From: Perkinsus marinus ATCC 50983
Lineage: Eukaryota; Perkinsozoa; Perkinsida; Perkinsidae
Assembly: GCF_000006405.1 (NCBI RefSeq)
Contig: NW_003209345.1
Location: 1-64,000, forward strand
Direction of reading: 5' to 3'
DNA length: 64,000 nucleotides
Below, piece by piece: positions 468-45,514 of the stretch. The position numbers were made by a program, and so were the translations under genes. The stretch's first letter is position 1, and every line of letters starts with the position of its first letter. The notes under the pieces were generated by a model that did no database searches, was not told the origin of the DNA, and saw only the letters and a list, made by a program, of their open reading frames with translations.

Positions 468-560
468 ACCGTAGCCATCTTGGCTCAAGGTAGATATCAG
501 GTCCTCTCGCTAGGCTGCAGCCGCAAGGTGAATGCCGGTGACGACCCTTTTGCTCCCCGT
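468..560 (+). ncRNA. candidate spliced-leader (SL) RNA gene
   Basis: Bases 468-489 match the 22-nt leader that dinoflagellates and Perkinsus add to nuclear mRNAs by trans-splicing: an A, then CCGTAGCCAT, CTT and GGCTCAAG. The leader is followed immediately by GTAGAT, a 5' splice donor, which is how an SL RNA gene is built (leader exon plus short intron). This distinguishes it from a retroposed leader relic, which would continue into mRNA sequence. The following bases contain a small GC-rich stem candidate (GGCTGCAGCC at about 512-521) and a short T run near 547. The 3' end given here is an estimate, because perkinsid SL RNAs are under about 100 nt. It lies about 280 bp from a tRNA gene on the other strand. 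It could be a silent copy. Confidence 0.6.
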
Positions 561-38834: not shown

Positions 38835-39065
38835 TGTCACGCCTGATGACCAGCCGTGATAGTCTACTCGCTCGCCCTGGAGAAACGCCCCGAAGCCGTG
38901 ATGATTCGTTATATATTGAGTATTGAGTATTATTGCTAATTCAGTGACTGCATGTATACTCCGTAGCCATCTGGCTCAAGTATTCTCTTTGCTTGTTTAT
39001 ACGATGGCGAGTAGCGTTCGGCAGTCGGAGCATGCGGAAGCCTCACGGACCAACGTGCCACAACA
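38835..39065 (+). repeat. 5' LTR (231 bp)
   Basis: Identical to 45284-45514. It contains TATATATTGAG near 38910, the spliced-leader-like sequence at 38960-38980, and the gag start codon at 39004, so the first 20 gag codons lie inside the repeat. Confidence 0.95.
38960..38980 (+). promoter_or_regulatory. spliced-leader sequence inside the 5' LTR
   Basis: T, CCGTAGCCAT and CTGGCTCAAG: the perkinsid leader with one T fewer than the copy at 468-489. It is followed by TATTCTC rather than by a GT donor, so this is leader joined to mRNA sequence and not an SL RNA gene. The gag ATG follows 23 nt later, the position expected for a trans-spliced 5' UTR. Confidence 0.85.
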
Positions 39066-40659
39066 TGGTGACAGCTGTGCACGAGGTGGTGAAGGAGAGG
39101 TTCCTGACGACTGCACCGTCGATCACTTGCAAAAGCAGTTACGTTCTCTCCGCATGAAGAGAGGCCGTGCCCGTGGTAATCAGAAACGCATTCGCGAGGC
39201 CATTGACAACATCATTCTTGATGAGCTGGCACCAGCGGAGCAGGTGCGCGAAGATTGTGAAATGATCGATGCACTCCATCAGAAGGAGGACACTATTGCC
39301 GCAGAAATTGAGTCTCTTGACGCCGACATTGCTGAGACCATAGCCAAGGTCGATCTTCTACGGTCAACACGAGCTAGGGAGCAAGGTAGATCCCGGGTAG
39401 GTTCACCAACCCCCTCGGTGAACGACGGTTGCTCGAGTACTAGATCTTATGGGGAGCTCAGTCTTGGCCAACATGGAGCTCCCGTATGGGTACCCACGGA
39501 TCACAGAGGAAGAACGGCACCTCCTATGAGCTCCGACTCGGCATCCCGAGCTCAGAGTTTGAAGAGTGTGGTGGCCCAATCTGTGCCCGTGCCCGCGCTA
39601 GAAGTTTTTCCATCTGTGTCCCACCGCCCGGCAACGTCAACCGAAGTCTCGCGCCTCAAATTCGCCCAGTGCGAGGACGCTATGAGCTTATCCAGGCATT
39701 ACACGTCTGTGGAGGCAATCCTGGCGGAGGCCAATGCTGGAACGCTCTCGGGAGAGACCTTCGTACCGCACAGGCATCTGCGCGTGGCATGTGTTTCGAG
39801 ATTGGTGTCTTCTCTCAAACCCGTGGCTCTGAAATCTGCGGCGGAAGATCAGGCACTGAGTACCCAGTGGGACTGGTGTGGGGTTAAGGCTGCTCTTCTG
39901 GGACAGTTCTGTCGAAGATCAATACTACAGAAAGCATACGCCACGTCCATCTCGCGCCTGTCATTCCCGGGTGTGGCTCACTGCGACAACTTCCTAAACG
40001 AGGCCGATAGAATTGTCAATTTGCATCGAGATGCCTTCGAGGCTTCATCGAGTGAAAGAAGAGTGGTTATCAGGGCCATAGTCGGACGACTCCCTCGAGA
40101 GATCCGGGGCCTAGTCATACGGGCTATCAGAGACTGTCGCTTGGATGTGGATGCTCTGGATAGGGAGTGGGAACTCCTTCTTCCTTGGCGAGGGAGGGTC
40201 GCTGGCGATCTCAGATCAGTTCGAGAAGTGATTCGATCCATCTGTCGTTCGAGTGAGGACGTCGAGCTGGCCGCCAATCCTCTCGAAGCAATGCCAGTGC
40301 CCAAGCATGATCAAATATCATTCGCGGGAGGTTCTGCAAAGGGTGAGACCAAAGCTGCGCGAACCTCGGGAAACTTGGAGAACTGGGTTAAAGGCTTTGC
40401 AAAGGCGCTCGTTGTTACCGGCGATGGCTGTGAGGACGAGTTTCAAATGAGAGATATCCTTTTTGCTAAGGACGCTCGCTTCTTTCGCTCTCGTCGGGGC
40501 GCTGCCAAGCCATATGTTATCGCCTGTTACGGCACCGAGTCCGCGGCCATTGAGGCCACCGCTCGTCTAGAAGGTAAAGGGTACAAGCAGCGCCCCTTTG
40601 TCTTCCGGGGCGTCTCAAGCTCTGCCAATCCCGCCAGTATGGAGTCGGGAAACTGCTAA
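39004..40659 (+). CDS. retrotransposon Gag-like protein
   Basis: 551 residues from the ATG at 39004 (MASSVRQSEHAEAS), the first ATG after the leader sequence. An in-frame ATG at 38923 would lie upstream of the leader and is unlikely to be used. An N-terminal charged coiled coil (LQKQLRSLRMKRGRARGNQK and the following Asp/Glu-rich helices) spans roughly residues 35-115, then a Ser/Pro-rich linker, then a probable capsid-like helical region (around residues 210-430). No CCHC zinc knuckle is present. The frame overlaps the 5' LTR and the primer-binding site. It ends at 40659, in a different frame from pol and 92 bases before pol's frame opens. Confidence 0.85.
   Translation: MASSVRQSEHAEASRTNVPQHGDSCARGGEGEVPDDCTVDHLQKQLRSLRMKRGRARGNQKRIREAIDNIILDELAPAEQVREDCEMIDALHQKEDTIAAEIESLDADIAETIAKVDLLRSTRAREQGRSRVGSPTPSVNDGCSSTRSYGELSLGQHGAPVWVPTDHRGRTAPPMSSDSASRAQSLKSVVAQSVPVPALEVFPSVSHRPATSTEVSRLKFAQCEDAMSLSRHYTSVEAILAEANAGTLSGETFVPHRHLRVACVSRLVSSLKPVALKSAAEDQALSTQWDWCGVKAALLGQFCRRSILQKAYATSISRLSFPGVAHCDNFLNEADRIVNLHRDAFEASSSERRVVIRAIVGRLPREIRGLVIRAIRDCRLDVDALDREWELLLPWRGRVAGDLRSVREVIRSICRSSEDVELAANPLEAMPVPKHDQISFAGGSAKGETKAARTSGNLENWVKGFAKALVVTGDGCEDEFQMRDILFAKDARFFRSRRGAAKPYVIACYGTESAAIEATARLEGKGYKQRPFVFRGVSSSANPASMESGNC
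39066..39083 (+). promoter_or_regulatory. candidate tRNA primer-binding site
   Basis: Starts TGGTGACAG at the base directly after the 5' LTR. TGG pairs with the CCA end of tRNAs. It lies inside the gag reading frame. The primer tRNA is not identified. Confidence 0.55.
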
Positions 40660-40814: not shown

Positions 40815-43800
40815 ATGCCGAAGCAGGTCACTAACTCTTGCCTGAGCTGGTCGCACTGTTCGAGTTCCGCGAGAGGTGAGCCGGAAGCAGGTCTGTCAAC
40901 ACCAAAGTCATGCGACATAAGTCGGCCTTCTGGAACAGAGCTGCCATGTCCTGTTCTTACTCACTCCATCAGCCCCCAGCCCGTGAGTATGCCTTCATCG
41001 CCATCGTCGTACACGCTCGCCTTGCACAAGGATCCGGTAGAGGATCGACTATGCTCGGTGGCCTTGGATATTCAACACCGCACGGTTTTACTGGACTCCC
41101 CACCCGAGTTAACAATCTCGGTCGACATAGTGGATGCTGCTCTGTCGCCAAACTCTGTGGGTCTCCATAAACCACCTGCCCGTATATCAAGAATTCGCGG
41201 GGTCGTGGACTCGGGGGCGGGCAAGAGCTATATAATGTTCGGCAACTCCTCTGAGCATACTACTGAGTCGGCCAAGTTTCATAGGATACCCACATCGGTT
41301 TGGGTGGGACTGGCTGATGGCAGTCGCTGTAGCATCACGGAGATGATTGCGGTTGTCGTGACCGTGAGAAAGCCTTTGGAGGCCTCGCTCGGTCCAGTCA
41401 ACGTCTCTGTCCTCCCAAACCATGAGCGAAACAGCGAGACATGTATGCTGATTGGACGCGACCTCGGAGCAGCCTTGGGCCTCTGCTTGGACCTGGGTGC
41501 AGGTGTTGTTCGCAGCGCTGAGAAATCAGCCGACGAACCTATCGTGGACAACTCCGATTTCGTTCGGTATGTTGATCAACTCAGTGCCACTACTGCTGCC
41601 CAGCCCAGACTTGTCGATGCATGCACGACGGAATATCTAACGCCATCCTTACCTGAAGACCTATCCAAGAAGGTCGAGGCCTTGATAAACCGTTCGGTCG
41701 CGGAGGGCTTTTTCCAAGAGCCAACCTTGCCAGGGTATCGACTTGCTTTTCGTAACCTCAGTGAAGAGGACAAACCGGACTGTGTCGAACAGGTGGCGGC
41801 CCTCTTCGTAGATCTCCCGGATACTCCAATAGCCACTGCCAAAAGCCGTCTATATGCACTGCATGCCTACAAGAAGCTCGCAGAGGGCCAGAAATCAGTG
41901 TACAGCAAGCTCATCGAGGCATACGTGGCGAGAGGTTTCTGGCGGCCTGTGTCCGGTGACGAGGCCACTTCAACTAGGATCACTTTGCCGCCGTGTCCAT
42001 GCTTCGTCACGAATTGGGAACGAAAGCCCAGGGTGGTGCTGGACTGCAGACCGGTTAACCAAGCTTTAGGCAAAGTTTCAAGTCCACGGGTCATCCCCTG
42101 GACTCTGATCCTCGCGATGCGTTTGCAGGGAGATGTTGTGCTGCTACAAGGCGACTGCGAGGCCGCATTTTACAAATGCAGGCTCTTGCGTCATACTGTG
42201 TTGATTCAGGCGGCTACTGGTCTCTTTGAGTGTCTGAGAGTGAGCTTTGGCCTCCATTTCGGCCCTGGGTCTTTGACGACAGGGATTCACCGGATTGAGA
42301 CTAGCATCCGCAACGTGCTGACTGAGCTGTGGCCCTTAGTCAACATGGTGATCCGGTGGTATGTGGACGACCTCGTCATGTCGGCAGACGATGTGGCGAT
42401 AGCAGTCGCAGGGTTTGCTATGGTCATCTATGCTCTACTGCTCCTCGGTTTCAGCGCACAGATGGCGAAGGTGGCCGCCCTGGTCCATTCCTCAGTGGTC
42501 AACCAGTTCAAGGAGGCGTGTCGTCAATACGGCGTTCAGCTTCCGGTGAAGGAGCGGGTTGAGATTCTTGGCCTCACAGCTTCCTTCGACGACAACCACC
42601 TAGTTCTCGACTGCAATCGACAGTCTCGGTGGTCTGTAGTTGAGGCATTTCTCGAGTGTCGTTCACCAACAAAACGTCTGGCCTTCCAAGCGGCTGGCGC
42701 GGCTGCGTATGATGTGGGACAAATCCATCCGATCGAGCGCCTGGTCTCGGATTGCCTTCGAGCCATAGTGGGACGAGCCTTTAGTCACCTAGCTTGGGGT
42801 ACGGAGTACGACATCGGCAAGCTGTCCGACCGCTTGAGAGAAGCGTACTGTGCCATACTTGACTGGCTGAGGGAGCTCACTCCCGCTGATAAATGTATGC
42901 ACCGGTCGCTACTGAGATCCTGCAAGAGCGAACCGGTGAGGTTGATCCTAGAGACTGATGCCAGCTTGACTGGAGGTGGCTTCTCGCTGTGGGTAGGCTC
43001 GGATAGTGCTCAAGTCGGCGACTGTGGTACATTCGAATTGGGTAGTGCGGCATGGCGGTGGACTGCGAGATCCAGCTGTTGGCACAGTAACAGAAGGGAG
43101 CTGGCGGCCCTGTGGCGTGGCATCCTCTTCACCAGCACATTACTCACAGCCTGGATTTCCTCGCAGTCAAGTCCCGATCGAGCCGTTCTGGTTATACGGA
43201 CGGACAACGCCGCTTGTGCTCGGTGGGCCAACGACGTCAAGGTATCTCGTGCACTGGAAGCACGGGCACTGCAGAGACTGGCGGCAGCAATTCGGGCTGA
43301 GATCGTGCTGATCAAAGCCCATGGGGTAGAAGTCAGTATGCGGCATCTCCCCGGAGTCTTAAATGTGCGAGCCGACAGGCTTTCGAGAGCTCTGGAGCGT
43401 AAGACCAGGGGTGGGTCTCAGCTAGGGCGGCTCATGCAAGACCATCTCGACCCACCGGTGCGAGTCGCTCAGGAACTGGACGATTTTGTCTGCCGTCTGG
43501 GTGAGCTGCCAGTTGCCAAGAGGGTCGACGTCCCCCAGTTTGAGCCTATCGGTCAGCCTTTCGACCGAGTCTGTCAGTTACAGGAATGTGATACCCCGGT
43601 CGAGACACATCCCGTTGGCCTGGCCGACACCGTGGCTTCTCGGAGCTGGGATGTCGACTGCGCTCTGCATGGATGGAAGACGCTCCGCTTTGCCTTTCAG
43701 GCGTGGTCGGGATCAGTGGCTATACCGTCGGACTATCCCACGGCCTACAGTGACGAGGATGTCTGGTCTTTCATACGATCCTTACAGCGGTCATCGCGTG

Positions 43801-45308
43801 CCGCGGTAGTGGATGGTGCGGAGAACCGGAAGCTACCTACCAAATTCCATGTCGATAAGGATGGCACACTTTTCTACAAGTGCGTGGGCGCGGATGGCAA
43901 GCTGTTCCTCGCCTTTTACGTGCCCAGTGATTGTAACTTTACACGCCGGCTACTGGCGCGGGTCTACCATAAGGCCGGTGCACACTGCAGTGCCCAGGCG
44001 ACCGTTGAACGTGCTATTGAGGCGGGGTTTTTTACCCCCAGGCTCCGACAAGTGGTCACCAACGAGATGGCGACATGTGTGAGATGCCAGGTCTTGAGCA
44101 GTAGGCGCGAATGGGCGGTCACTCCCGGCCAAGCGGGGGGAGGCCCGGGATTCGATCTGTACAGGCTGGCCCTCGAAACCCCCGAGCCCTACCTCTGGGT
44201 TGGCATCGACGTCCTATCCCTTGGGCCCTTCAAGTGCCTGACGTGCGTTTGCCTCCTTACGAAACACGCCTGCTGGATCGCGCTGGGTGGCGGCCAGACG
44301 GCTGAAGAACTGCTTGAGGCGACTGAGAGGGTCGCTCGCCGGCAAGGCGGTTGCAGGTTCCGGTACATAGTGTGTGATGGAGCGGTAGGGAGCAGGACCT
44401 ACACCATGGAGGTAGGGAGACGGCTGAACGCGCAAGTCGTGTTGCAGGACCCAAGAGCCCCTTGGGCCGGCGGGTTCGAAACTCATCACCGGATCGGGCT
44501 CAAAGCAGCACGAGTCTTGTTTCACGGCTACAGTAGGAACTGTGACTGGGGAAACTCGGTTGTTGCCCAGGACTTCTGCGACGAGGTGTGCAGTATCATC
44601 AACTCGCGTCCTTTGACTAGCGGCGACGTCACCCAGGACGCTCGGGTAGTCGCACTCACCCCGAACTCTTTGCGATTCGGCTATTCATTGAGAGGTCACC
44701 AAGGAGTGGGGTTGATCACCCCGGATCTTGCAGGGAGTTCTGAGGCGATGGATGATGCTGAGAAGTCTGCTTTCGTCGGCCGTCGCGCACATCTAATGAG
44801 ATCATTCGTCAACCATTACCTTCCGGCCCGTCGTCGAGCAGTCTTCGAAACGTTAAGCGGGGGTAGCCGCCCTACGCAACCCTTCCGAGTGGGTGACTCG
44901 GTCATCATTCATCAGCCGTCGCGGAAGCAGGACGCATGCTGGCGAACCGGATGGGTTGTCAGCTGCCTATCTACGCACAGATACAGAGTATTGCACTCGT
45001 CACCACGGGCTGGAGCAGAGAGGATCACCATCGAGAATCACTACAACCTGCACCCGTTGAAGCTTGCTTGTGAAGTGCACGCAGGTCCCACTCTGGTCGG
45101 TGCCAGACTTAGAGTCCTGCTGTCACACGCCGATGGCTTCCGGGATTATCATTGGGGTACCATCTTGGTTGATCGAAGCGAAGATGATCGTGTACTCATC
45201 GTGTGGGACGTTGCAGATGAAGGTGTGTCCGCCCGTGAATGGCTAGCTCTCTCTCAAGAGACTTGGGACTACGGGGAGGGGCATGTCACGCCTGATGACC
45301 AGCCGTGA
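40815..45308 (+). CDS. retrotransposon Pol polyprotein (protease, RT, RNase H, integrase)
   Basis: 1,497 residues. The aspartic protease active site DSGAGKS is at residue 132. RT blocks are KPRVVLDCRPVNQAL, FECLRVSFGLHFGPGSL and the catalytic YVDD at residue 516. RNase H starts at ETDASLTGG (Asp near residue 715) and includes SNRRELAALWRG and RTDNAACARWANDV. The integrase HHCC region has AGAHCSAQATVERA and CVRCQ (from about residue 1050). The integrase core has LWVGIDVLSLG, CDGAVGS and APWAGGFETHHR. About 140 residues follow the core, with a basic GDSVIIHQPSRKQ block and a C-terminal domain of unknown role. The last eight codons, including the stop, lie in the 3' LTR. The frame is fully open, consistent with a potentially active element. 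Confidence 0.93.
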   Translation: MPKQVTNSCLSWSHCSSSARGEPEAGLSTPKSCDISRPSGTELPCPVLTHSISPQPVSMPSSPSSYTLALHKDPVEDRLCSVALDIQHRTVLLDSPPELTISVDIVDAALSPNSVGLHKPPARISRIRGVVDSGAGKSYIMFGNSSEHTTESAKFHRIPTSVWVGLADGSRCSITEMIAVVVTVRKPLEASLGPVNVSVLPNHERNSETCMLIGRDLGAALGLCLDLGAGVVRSAEKSADEPIVDNSDFVRYVDQLSATTAAQPRLVDACTTEYLTPSLPEDLSKKVEALINRSVAEGFFQEPTLPGYRLAFRNLSEEDKPDCVEQVAALFVDLPDTPIATAKSRLYALHAYKKLAEGQKSVYSKLIEAYVARGFWRPVSGDEATSTRITLPPCPCFVTNWERKPRVVLDCRPVNQALGKVSSPRVIPWTLILAMRLQGDVVLLQGDCEAAFYKCRLLRHTVLIQAATGLFECLRVSFGLHFGPGSLTTGIHRIETSIRNVLTELWPLVNMVIRWYVDDLVMSADDVAIAVAGFAMVIYALLLLGFSAQMAKVAALVHSSVVNQFKEACRQYGVQLPVKERVEILGLTASFDDNHLVLDCNRQSRWSVVEAFLECRSPTKRLAFQAAGAAAYDVGQIHPIERLVSDCLRAIVGRAFSHLAWGTEYDIGKLSDRLREAYCAILDWLRELTPADKCMHRSLLRSCKSEPVRLILETDASLTGGGFSLWVGSDSAQVGDCGTFELGSAAWRWTARSSCWHSNRRELAALWRGILFTSTLLTAWISSQSSPDRAVLVIRTDNAACARWANDVKVSRALEARALQRLAAAIRAEIVLIKAHGVEVSMRHLPGVLNVRADRLSRALERKTRGGSQLGRLMQDHLDPPVRVAQELDDFVCRLGELPVAKRVDVPQFEPIGQPFDRVCQLQECDTPVETHPVGLADTVASRSWDVDCALHGWKTLRFAFQAWSGSVAIPSDYPTAYSDEDVWSFIRSLQRSSRAAVVDGAENRKLPTKFHVDKDGTLFYKCVGADGKLFLAFYVPSDCNFTRRLLARVYHKAGAHCSAQATVERAIEAGFFTPRLRQVVTNEMATCVRCQVLSSRREWAVTPGQAGGGPGFDLYRLALETPEPYLWVGIDVLSLGPFKCLTCVCLLTKHACWIALGGGQTAEELLEATERVARRQGGCRFRYIVCDGAVGSRTYTMEVGRRLNAQVVLQDPRAPWAGGFETHHRIGLKAARVLFHGYSRNCDWGNSVVAQDFCDEVCSIINSRPLTSGDVTQDARVVALTPNSLRFGYSLRGHQGVGLITPDLAGSSEAMDDAEKSAFVGRRAHLMRSFVNHYLPARRRAVFETLSGGSRPTQPFRVGDSVIIHQPSRKQDACWRTGWVVSCLSTHRYRVLHSSPRAGAERITIENHYNLHPLKLACEVHAGPTLVGARLRVLLSHADGFRDYHWGTILVDRSEDDRVLIVWDVADEGVSAREWLALSQETWDYGEGHVTPDDQP
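45267..45283 (+). promoter_or_regulatory. polypurine tract before the 3' LTR
   Basis: GGGGAGGGG, followed by CA, directly abuts the 3' LTR. This is the expected plus-strand primer site, and it lies inside pol coding sequence. Confidence 0.7.
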
Positions 45309-45514
45309 TAGTCTACTCGCTCGCCCTGGAGAAACGCCCCGAAGCCGTGATGATTCGTTATATATTGAGTATTGAGTATTATTGCTAATTCAGTGACTGC
45401 ATGTATACTCCGTAGCCATCTGGCTCAAGTATTCTCTTTGCTTGTTTATACGATGGCGAGTAGCGTTCGGCAGTCGGAGCATGCGGAAGCCTCACGGACC
45501 AACGTGCCACAACA
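45284..45514 (+). repeat. 3' LTR (231 bp)
   Basis: Identical to the 5' LTR. It holds the pol stop codon (45306-45308), a second leader sequence at 45409-45429 and the gag ATG at 45453. That ATG reads into flanking DNA for a few codons after the element ends. Confidence 0.95.

What the first reader, a model, noticed from the sequence alone, without database searches (positions are those of the whole stretch)
38960..38980. A spliced-leader sequence is built into both LTRs of a retrotransposon, just upstream of gag
Seen: 21 bases matching the perkinsid/dinoflagellate leader (one T shorter than the copy at 468-489) occur in both identical LTRs, 23 nt before the gag ATG, and are not followed by a GT donor. 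Known: these organisms trans-splice a leader to mRNAs, and leader relics are found in retroposed cDNAs. Inference: the element's RNA was once trans-spliced and the leader was fixed in the LTR by reverse transcription. It may now define the R region or RNA start, giving Gag RNA a leader-like 5' UTR without, or in addition to, trans-splicing. An LTR element that carries the host leader in its own repeat would be a new relation between retroelement and trans-splicing machinery.
Basis: partly seen in the sequence, partly recalled or inferred. Interest (0 to 1): 0.92.

Follow-up and report, generated by a model that had tools for sequence, protein, structure and literature searches.

The report
Retrotransposon repeats carry host spliced leader
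In the genome of an oyster parasite, many families of jumping elements carry, inside their end repeats, the short leader that the host splices onto its messenger RNAs, and the copies look as if this piece is picked up anew from spliced RNA when the elements copy themselves.

Summary
38960-38980 is the exact 21-nt (S-type) Perkinsus marinus spliced leader (SL), in both 231-nt LTRs (231/231 identical), 23 nt before the gag ATG. It is no isolated case. Genome-wide, SL sites without the SL-RNA intron fall into 15 families with mostly unrelated flanks (one, F4, probably a single insertion), and 16 of 16 aligned pairs are direct repeats through or up to the SL. Several facts point to capture from trans-spliced RNA, more than once. 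The inserted piece is the SL exon without intron. One family member carries a different SL, matching a third SL-RNA gene type. Separate insertions identical over 100-121 flanking bases differ in their SL. SL nucleotide 3 is a hotspot and agrees between paired LTRs. One family has the SL joined at two points. Some LTRs hold SL plus partial SL. The first ATG follows the SL by 19-36 nt in 14 of 15 5'-LTR copies. I infer that trans-spliced element RNA is reverse transcribed and that the leader serves as the 5' part of R. SL-less relatives exist (two LTR pairs seen), so it is not obligatory. No RNA data were available: the trans-splicing origin is strong, the role as R is inference.

The parts
38835..39065 (+). 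5' LTR, 231 nt, TG...CA; contains the SL and the start of the gag-position ORF
   Evidence: 231 of 231 identical to 45284-45514, repeat stops at both ends
38960..38980 (+). S-type spliced leader (T + CCGTAGCCATCTGGCTCAAG) in the 5' LTR; proposed 5' end of R
   Evidence: identical to the exon of 8 SL RNA genes
39066..39080 (+). putative primer-binding site TGGTGACAGCTGTGC, directly after the 5' LTR and inside the gag-position ORF
   Evidence: position and TGG start only, no tRNA matched
39004..40659 (+). gag-position ORF; ATG 23 nt after the SL and inside the LTR
   Evidence: called gag by position only, no Pfam family
40815..45308 (+). pol ORF: DSG protease motif (by eye), RT (WYVDDL), RNase H-like stretch (by eye), integrase (H2C2, rve); runs into the 3' LTR
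   Evidence: all Pfam hits below curated cut-offs; 99% identical over residues 280-900 to Pmar_PMAR010102
45273..45283 (+). polypurine tract GGGGAGGGGCA directly before the 3' LTR
45284..45514 (+). 3' LTR, 231 nt
45409..45429 (+). S-type spliced leader in the 3' LTR
468..489 (+). exon of an L-type SL RNA gene (A + CCGTAGCCATCTTGGCTCAAG), donor GT at 490; for comparison, not part of the element

Best explanation
This is an LTR retrotransposon of Perkinsus marinus whose LTR contains the host spliced leader because its RNA is trans-spliced and then reverse transcribed. Shown by sequence: the SL exon sits in both LTRs, without SL intron, ahead of a short 5' UTR and a long open frame, in many families. 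Inferred: a promoter in U3 makes a pre-RNA; the host spliceosome joins an SL RNA exon to an AG in the 5' LTR, often the AG that ends the resident SL, so that the product looks unchanged; the capped SL-RNA is translated and packaged; reverse transcriptase copies to the 5' end and so copies the SL; the SL already encoded in the 3' LTR gives the homology for the first strand transfer. The leader, donated in trans, thus serves as the 5' part of the terminal repeat R and is renewed whenever a trans-spliced RNA is copied. Splicing at another AG, or copying of modified nucleotides beside the cap, leaves the observed scars.
For: (1) Exon without intron: of 109 context rows only the 9 of the SL-gene cluster continue with GTA(A/G)ATATCA; none of the other 100 rows (23 clusters) does. 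(2) SL type switch: SL RNA genes at C21 have the exon CCGTAGCCGTTTGGCTCAAG. F5 copies at C15 and C343 carry ...CCATCTGG..., the F5 element on C37 carries ...CCGTTTGG... in both LTRs; outside the SL C37 differs from C15 at 14 of 302 aligned bases plus 1 gap. (3) Four F13 sites identical over 121/121 downstream bases carry three SL versions (CCG+L; CTG+L at both C251 sites; CTG+S); the C137, C251 and C108 insertions differ in outer flanks. Six F9 sites, three elements, with 100% identical U3 (101-106 nt) carry CCG (4 sites) or CTG (2). (4) SL nucleotide 3 accounts for 9 of 26 within-family alternative bases over 21 positions in 88 rows of 15 families (binomial 1.9e-6 for that one position, about 4e-5 after correction for 21), although all 13 SL RNA genes read ACCG. 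Paired LTRs agree at this site in 18 of 19 elements. (5) F10: C39 has SL+TGCGAG+TTTCG in both LTRs, C281 has SL+TTTCG in both: the same U5 joined at two points, the second right after an AG. (6) SL followed by SL suffixes at six sites: C235, C122, C176, C239, C37:24256, C343:339481. (7) First ATG 19-36 nt after the SL in 14 of 15 5'-LTR copies.
Against: No RNA: neither the 5' nor the poly(A) end is known. SL type mostly follows family (S in F1-F4; L in F6, F7, F9-F12, F14, F15), so renewal from the mixed SL pool cannot be complete in every cycle. The C176 relic is in the 3' LTR only, which a reverse-transcription event should not give. The relics CTCAAG and GCTCAAG do not begin after an AG. 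The C37 LTR pair differs by one base at SL nucleotides 2-3 and one elsewhere in about 206 bases. Two related elements have LTR pairs without an SL, so the leader is not needed in general. Sites were found by SL search, so SL conservation is biased upwards; the comparison between positions inside the SL is less so. Some of the 26 changes sit in old copies, and the events were counted as distinct alternative bases per family, not on a tree.
Confidence: 0.72

Rival explanations
1. Fossil: each family captured the SL once from a trans-spliced RNA; since then it has been passed on by ordinary LTR copying and has no present role.
For: SL type mostly follows family; the SL decays with its flanks in old F1 copies; SL-less relatives live without it.
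Against: SL replaced by another existing SL type in F5; several SL versions on otherwise near-identical insertions; nucleotide-3 hotspot concordant between LTRs; two attachment points in F10; similar 19-36 nt spacing to the first ATG.
Confidence: 0.18
2. Leader mimicry without trans-splicing: transcription starts at the first nucleotide of the embedded SL, so the element makes its own SL-like 5' end, R begins there, and cap-adjacent modification explains the hotspot.
For: The SL lies where R should begin, with a short 5' UTR; the nucleotide-3 hotspot says only that an RNA 5' end lies there.
Against: Does not explain the exact match to a third SL RNA type, different SL versions on near-identical insertions, two attachment points, or tandem SLs; upstream sequences in the LTR clusters are not those of the SL RNA genes.
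Confidence: 0.07
3. Gene conversion or recombination between LTRs and SL RNA genes placed and updates the SL.
For: Could in principle make an SL match a gene type.
Against: No LTR row shares the SL intron and the flank clustering keeps SL genes apart from all LTR clusters; the nucleotide-3 variants exist in none of the 13 SL RNA genes.
Confidence: 0.02
4. Chance match or assembly artefact.
For: None.
Against: 70 matches to a 17-base spaced pattern in 54.5 Mb with 0 for the reversed pattern; 16 of 16 aligned pairs are direct repeats; many contigs. Some contigs are duplicates of others (C52/C69, C174/C197), which inflates site counts but not the pattern.
Confidence: 0.005

Closest known systems
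Recycled SL-tagged retrogenes of dinoflagellates (Slamovits and Keeling 2008, not read; as described in passages of PMC3229502, and PMC7245778)
   Same: SL in genomic DNA from reverse-transcribed trans-spliced RNA; relics behind a newer SL, truncated after the AG at SL nucleotide 7
   Different: There host genes; here the SL is inside the self-copied terminal repeat of the element that supplies a reverse transcriptase, in both LTRs, and is inherited and apparently renewed
Unexplained intron-less SL-like sites in P. marinus (PMC3101222, section 16)
   Same: Probably the same class of sequence: more than 100 genomic sites with SL but no intron, most starting with T, not expressed as SL RNA
   Different: That section does not place them in LTRs or retrotransposons; section 22 cites the retrogene idea for dinoflagellates and P. 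marinus genes
Cer1 of C. elegans (PMC3315495, passages)
   Same: LTR element whose RNA is an SL1 trans-splicing substrate
   Different: SL1 was found on the spliced 2.4-kb mRNA (also found without it); the 8-kb message was not trans-spliced at that site, and the passages seen mention no SL encoded in the LTR
LTR retrotransposons with integrase after RNase H (Ty3 or Bel/Pao type)
   Same: LTRs, PBS, PPT, gag-position ORF, pol with integrase last
   Different: Host SL at the proposed 5' end of R; first ATG inside the LTR in the window element; RT too divergent for Pfam's cut-off

Membership tests
LTR retrotransposon | Two direct terminal repeats with TG...CA ends | tested here: met
   231/231 identical, TGTCACG...CCACAACA
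LTR retrotransposon | PBS after the 5' LTR and PPT before the 3' LTR | tested here: met
   TGGTGACAGC... and GGGGAGGGGCA at the exact borders; which tRNA primes was not tested
LTR retrotransposon | pol with RT and integrase | tested here: met
   RVT_1 E 0.0033, Integrase_H2C2 E 0.00015, rve E 0.028, all below curated cut-offs; 59 related RT stretches in the genome
LTR retrotransposon | Target-site duplication | tested here: inconclusive
   Only ACG is shared for the window element; GGCGG for C70 and CCAC for C221
Bel/Pao (Belpaoviridae) | RT and integrase of that clade | not tested
   Integrase motifs look Bel/Pao-like from recall only; no Bel/Pao-specific Pfam model among the hits
SL RNA gene | SL exon followed by the SL RNA intron | tested here: not met
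   0 of 100 LTR-type rows; the 13 SL RNA genes are elsewhere
SL-tagged retrocopy | Genomic SL exon joined to transcript sequence at a 3' splice site, no SL intron | tested here: met
   No intron in 100 of 100 rows (6 of 109 rows have a changed last six SL bases); F10 joined at two points, one directly after an AG. Splicing itself was not observed
SL-tagged retrocopy | Truncated SL relics behind the SL | tested here: met
   Six sites; the canonical truncation after CCGTAG in one, C176, in only one of its two LTRs
Element using the SL as R | RNA 5' end at the SL and poly(A) site downstream of the SL in the 3' LTR | not testable with these tools
   No RNA data; the repeat runs 21-88 nt past the SL in 12 of 14 pairs, 136 and 223 nt in C74 and C286

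The most novel reading that the evidence does not exclude
A group of LTR retrotransposons has outsourced the 5' end of its terminal repeat to the host: each RNA genome receives its R start in trans as a capped spliced leader, the 3' LTR keeps a matching SL for strand transfer, and the leader is refreshed from the host SL RNA pool. The LTRs would then be a genomic record of which SL was spliced on, at which AG, and of the modified nucleotides beside the Perkinsus cap (SL nucleotide 3, perhaps 1).
Probability: 0.5. Interest if true: 0.95.

Novelty: new variant of a known kind. Interest (0 to 1): 0.87.

Why it matters
Trans-splicing should break an LTR element: it removes the 5' copy of R that the first strand transfer needs. 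An SL encoded in the LTR would repair this and turn a host RNA-processing step into a part of the replication cycle. It would also offer an explanation for the intron-less SL-like sites reported in P. marinus in 2011, suggest a reverse-transcriptase source for SL-tagged retrogenes, and make the uncharacterised 5' cap of these mRNAs testable, because the reverse transcriptase seems to have left its misreadings at SL nucleotide 3 in the genome.

Tried and rejected
Chance: rejected. SL RNA gene or pseudogene inside the LTR: rejected, no intron. CpG deamination as the cause of the nucleotide-3 variants (C3-G4 is the only CpG in the SL): disfavoured, because C3 also becomes A or G, G4 to A was seen in 0 of 15 families (G4 to C once, in F3), and paired LTRs agree in 18 of 19 elements (for the 17 C/T pairs full agreement has chance 4.7e-5). 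Duplicate contigs as the cause of 'copies': checked where loci were long enough. F4's two sites (C52, C69), the F2 sites L015 and L018, and L071/L072 share both outer flanks; the F13 and F9 insertions used above do not. Extra conservation of the SL in old copies: looked for in F1, not found. A single origin of the SL in one RT clade: in RT trees SL-bearing and SL-less elements are mixed (F12 beside SL-less C115; F7, F9, F15 with SL-less C285); with divergent RTs and open deep forks, gains and losses cannot be told apart (22 rows, quick, 21 rows, without the long F8 row; F3 left out of both, its stop-free stretch being short). For most rows labelled SL-less the label rests on no SL-like site within 3 mismatches near the RT among the listed places (one search lists 100 of 112); LTR pairs were inspected for C104 and C197:485929 only, and in C244 no LTR pair was found. 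In the unbiased U3 search for F9 (22 matches) I did not read the copies that are absent from the SL lists. The second such search used sequence downstream of the SL, not U3 as I had meant; it is reported as such. PDB search with RT-RNase H: 0 hits. No structure was predicted. SL in viral contigs: one contig, see Noticed in passing. Literature: nothing on an SL in an LTR seen in the listings (open-licence PMC only; two searches found 0 papers). Also opened: PMC9399869 (outline, first part of section 6), PMC12014239, PMC2868825 and PMC11549093 (passages); none of these changed the reading. I vaguely recall older nematode work on Tas elements and the SL that I could not check, so priority outside Perkinsus is uncertain.

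Full report
Setting. The window lies in a 54.5-Mb, 347-contig genome (G000, contig C190). Its pol ORF is 99% identical over residues 280-900 to a P. marinus ATCC 50983 protein, with two P. olseni relatives at 62-67% (4 proteins in all), so the host is P. marinus or very near it. P. marinus uses two SLs, 21 nt (S) and 22 nt (L) (PMC3101222: abstract and sections 14, 15, 16, 22 read).

Observation. The LTR is 38835-39065 and 45284-45514, so the ATG (39004) lies inside the LTR and its frame runs on through the PBS.

The leader is general. The exact S-type 20-mer occurs 28 times in the genome, the exact L-type 21-mer 34 times, and CCGTAGCCAN{2,5}GGCTCAAG 70 times, with 0 for the reversed pattern. 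With up to 3 mismatches there are 112 L-like and 73 S-like sites, against 1 reversed-control site in each search (100 of the 112 were listed). Thirteen sites carry the SL RNA intron: 8 S, 3 L and 2 of a third type, CCGTAGCCGTTTGGCTCAAG. I read the surroundings of 109 distinct contexts, not of every site. Nine are SL RNA genes (one flank cluster of 24); the other 100 fall into 23 clusters, which I sorted by hand into 15 families with at least two sites (F1 = window) plus single sites whose LTR status I did not establish. F4's two sites are probably one insertion on duplicate contigs, and a few other rows are duplicates (short loci could not be tested). For 16 pairs I aligned the two copies: 14 are direct repeats running through the SL on both sides (169-364 nt); in C176 and C37 the gapless extension stops at an indel at the SL, and for C37 a gapped alignment shows the repeat continuing. 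By eye, a run of four or more G stands within 24 nt before the 3' repeat in 12 of the 16. In 14 of 15 5'-LTR copies the first ATG follows the SL by 19-36 nt (76 nt in F3). Of these 14, nine open a frame of more than 280 codons, two run open to the end of short loci, and three are short (45, 102, 143 codons). So the elements are laid out like a host SL mRNA: leader, short 5' UTR, start codon.

The leader came from trans-spliced RNA. None of the 100 LTR-type rows continues with the SL RNA intron; F6 continues with GTCTCAG or GTCTTAG, which shares only the GT. The clusters keep SL genes apart from LTRs by their flanks. A spliced RNA has this junction; an SL gene or SL RNA has not.

The leader is renewed. 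(a) F5 copies at C15 and C343 carry the S-type; the F5 element on C37 has the C21-type in both LTRs, two substitutions that match an existing SL RNA type exactly, while outside the SL it differs from C15 at 14 of 302 aligned bases plus one gap. (b) In F13 four sites identical over 121 of 121 downstream bases have three SL versions, and these are separate insertions (C137, C251 and C108 differ in outer flanks; C251 counts two sites); a fifth, C38, has a fourth version, CGG+L. In F9 six sites of three elements with 100% identical U3 have two versions. (c) F10 has the SL joined at two points of the same U5, 6 nt apart, concordant in both LTRs of each element; the shorter one follows an AG of the longer one. 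(d) Six sites have SL followed by an SL suffix, from 6 nt to a whole SL. Three of the start points fit an AG in the parent: CCGTAG|CC in C176, TTGAG|CCGTAG in C235, and, if the parent had an A at nucleotide 3, AG|TAGCC in C37:24256. CTCAAG and GCTCAAG do not fit an AG and stay unexplained.

The 5' end of the RNA probably lies at the SL. Over 88 rows of 15 families (12 of the 100 rows were left out: single sites, the second C235 site, C342 and other strays), SL nucleotide 3 holds 9 of 26 alternative bases at 21 positions (nucleotides 2-22) and varies in F7, F9, F12, F13 and F15, with three different bases in four of them (P 1.9e-6 for that position, uncorrected). All 13 SL RNA genes read ACCG. 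Paired LTRs agree here in 18 of 19 elements (12 CCG, 5 CTG, 1 ACG; C37 differs). For the 17 C/T pairs the chance of full agreement by shuffling is 4.7e-5. Three of the 19 pairs (C50, C137:1612984/1621782, C251:551968/554816) rest on spacing and orientation rather than. A change made before the LTR is duplicated, opposite a modified nucleotide near the cap, fits best. This is inference: the cap of the related dinoflagellates is undetermined and their first SL nucleotide is given as U, A or G (PMC6027434, passages). Nucleotide 1 also varies here (T, A, G).

Mechanism. Trans-splicing to the 5' LTR would normally destroy the terminal redundancy. If the 3' LTR encodes the SL, a trans-spliced RNA starts and ends with it, and the minus-strand strong-stop DNA can transfer. 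Splicing at the AG that ends the resident SL leaves no scar and refreshes it. That SL types mostly stay with families means either that unspliced RNA is also copied, that an element sees mainly one SL, or that refresh is rare.

Limits. No RNA was available. Results against the model: a relic in only one LTR of C176, non-AG relics, the C37 LTR mismatch, SL-less relatives (C104, C197:485929), and no extra conservation of the SL in old F1 copies. In RT trees SL-bearing and SL-less elements are interspersed, so the leader was gained or lost more than once, if the labels hold.

Known work. SL relics in retrogenes are known (PMC3229502, PMC7245778 and PMC12014239, passages). More than 100 intron-less SL sites in P. 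marinus were noted in PMC3101222, section 16, as not functional SL RNA genes. Cer1 makes an SL1-bearing mRNA, but its 8-kb RNA is not trans-spliced at that site (PMC3315495, passages). In the Echinococcus TRIM paper a solo-LTR transcript is spliced in cis to an SL acceptor site (PMC4558846, passages). My searches found no report of an SL inside LTRs.

Searches were added: they lowered the number of surely independent families (F4), put numbers on the F5 switch, and confirmed that the F13 and F9 insertions are separate.

Noticed in passing
L121:1936-2913 (IMGVR_UViG_3300045993_001077): An AT-rich viral contig (giant-virus-like by its ORFs, my impression) has two exact dinoflagellate leaders (CCGTAGCCATTTTGGCTCAAG) 147 bases apart; the second lies 45 nt before the ATG of a 254-aa ORF. 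It looks like a host gene captured by the virus from a trans-spliced mRNA.
   Followed up: partly
L098 and L099 (G000 C21, about 1279 and 2656): A third SL RNA gene type in this genome, exon CCGTAGCCGTTTGGCTCAAG followed by the usual intron start; PMC3101222 section 14 lists two major types, L and S.
   Followed up: partly
window 468-489: An L-type SL RNA gene about 38 kb from the element on the same contig.
   Followed up: partly
G000 C228 8612/13173 and C247 32368/36929: F6-type SL sites in inverted orientation about 4.5 kb apart, the same arrangement on two contigs.
   Followed up: no
L107 (G000 C164, about 155380): A partial leader (ATCTTGGCTCAA) lies directly upstream of a near-complete SL, the reverse order of the other relics.
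   Followed up: no
L095 (G000 C281 23135-24286): Three SL-like sites of family F15 (CAG at nucleotides 2-4) about 565 bases apart in one direction, perhaps a tandem of LTRs.
   Followed up: no
L002/L004 (C52, C69) and L015/L018 (C174, C197): Outer flanks are shared, so some contigs of this assembly are duplicates or alleles of others.
   Followed up: partly
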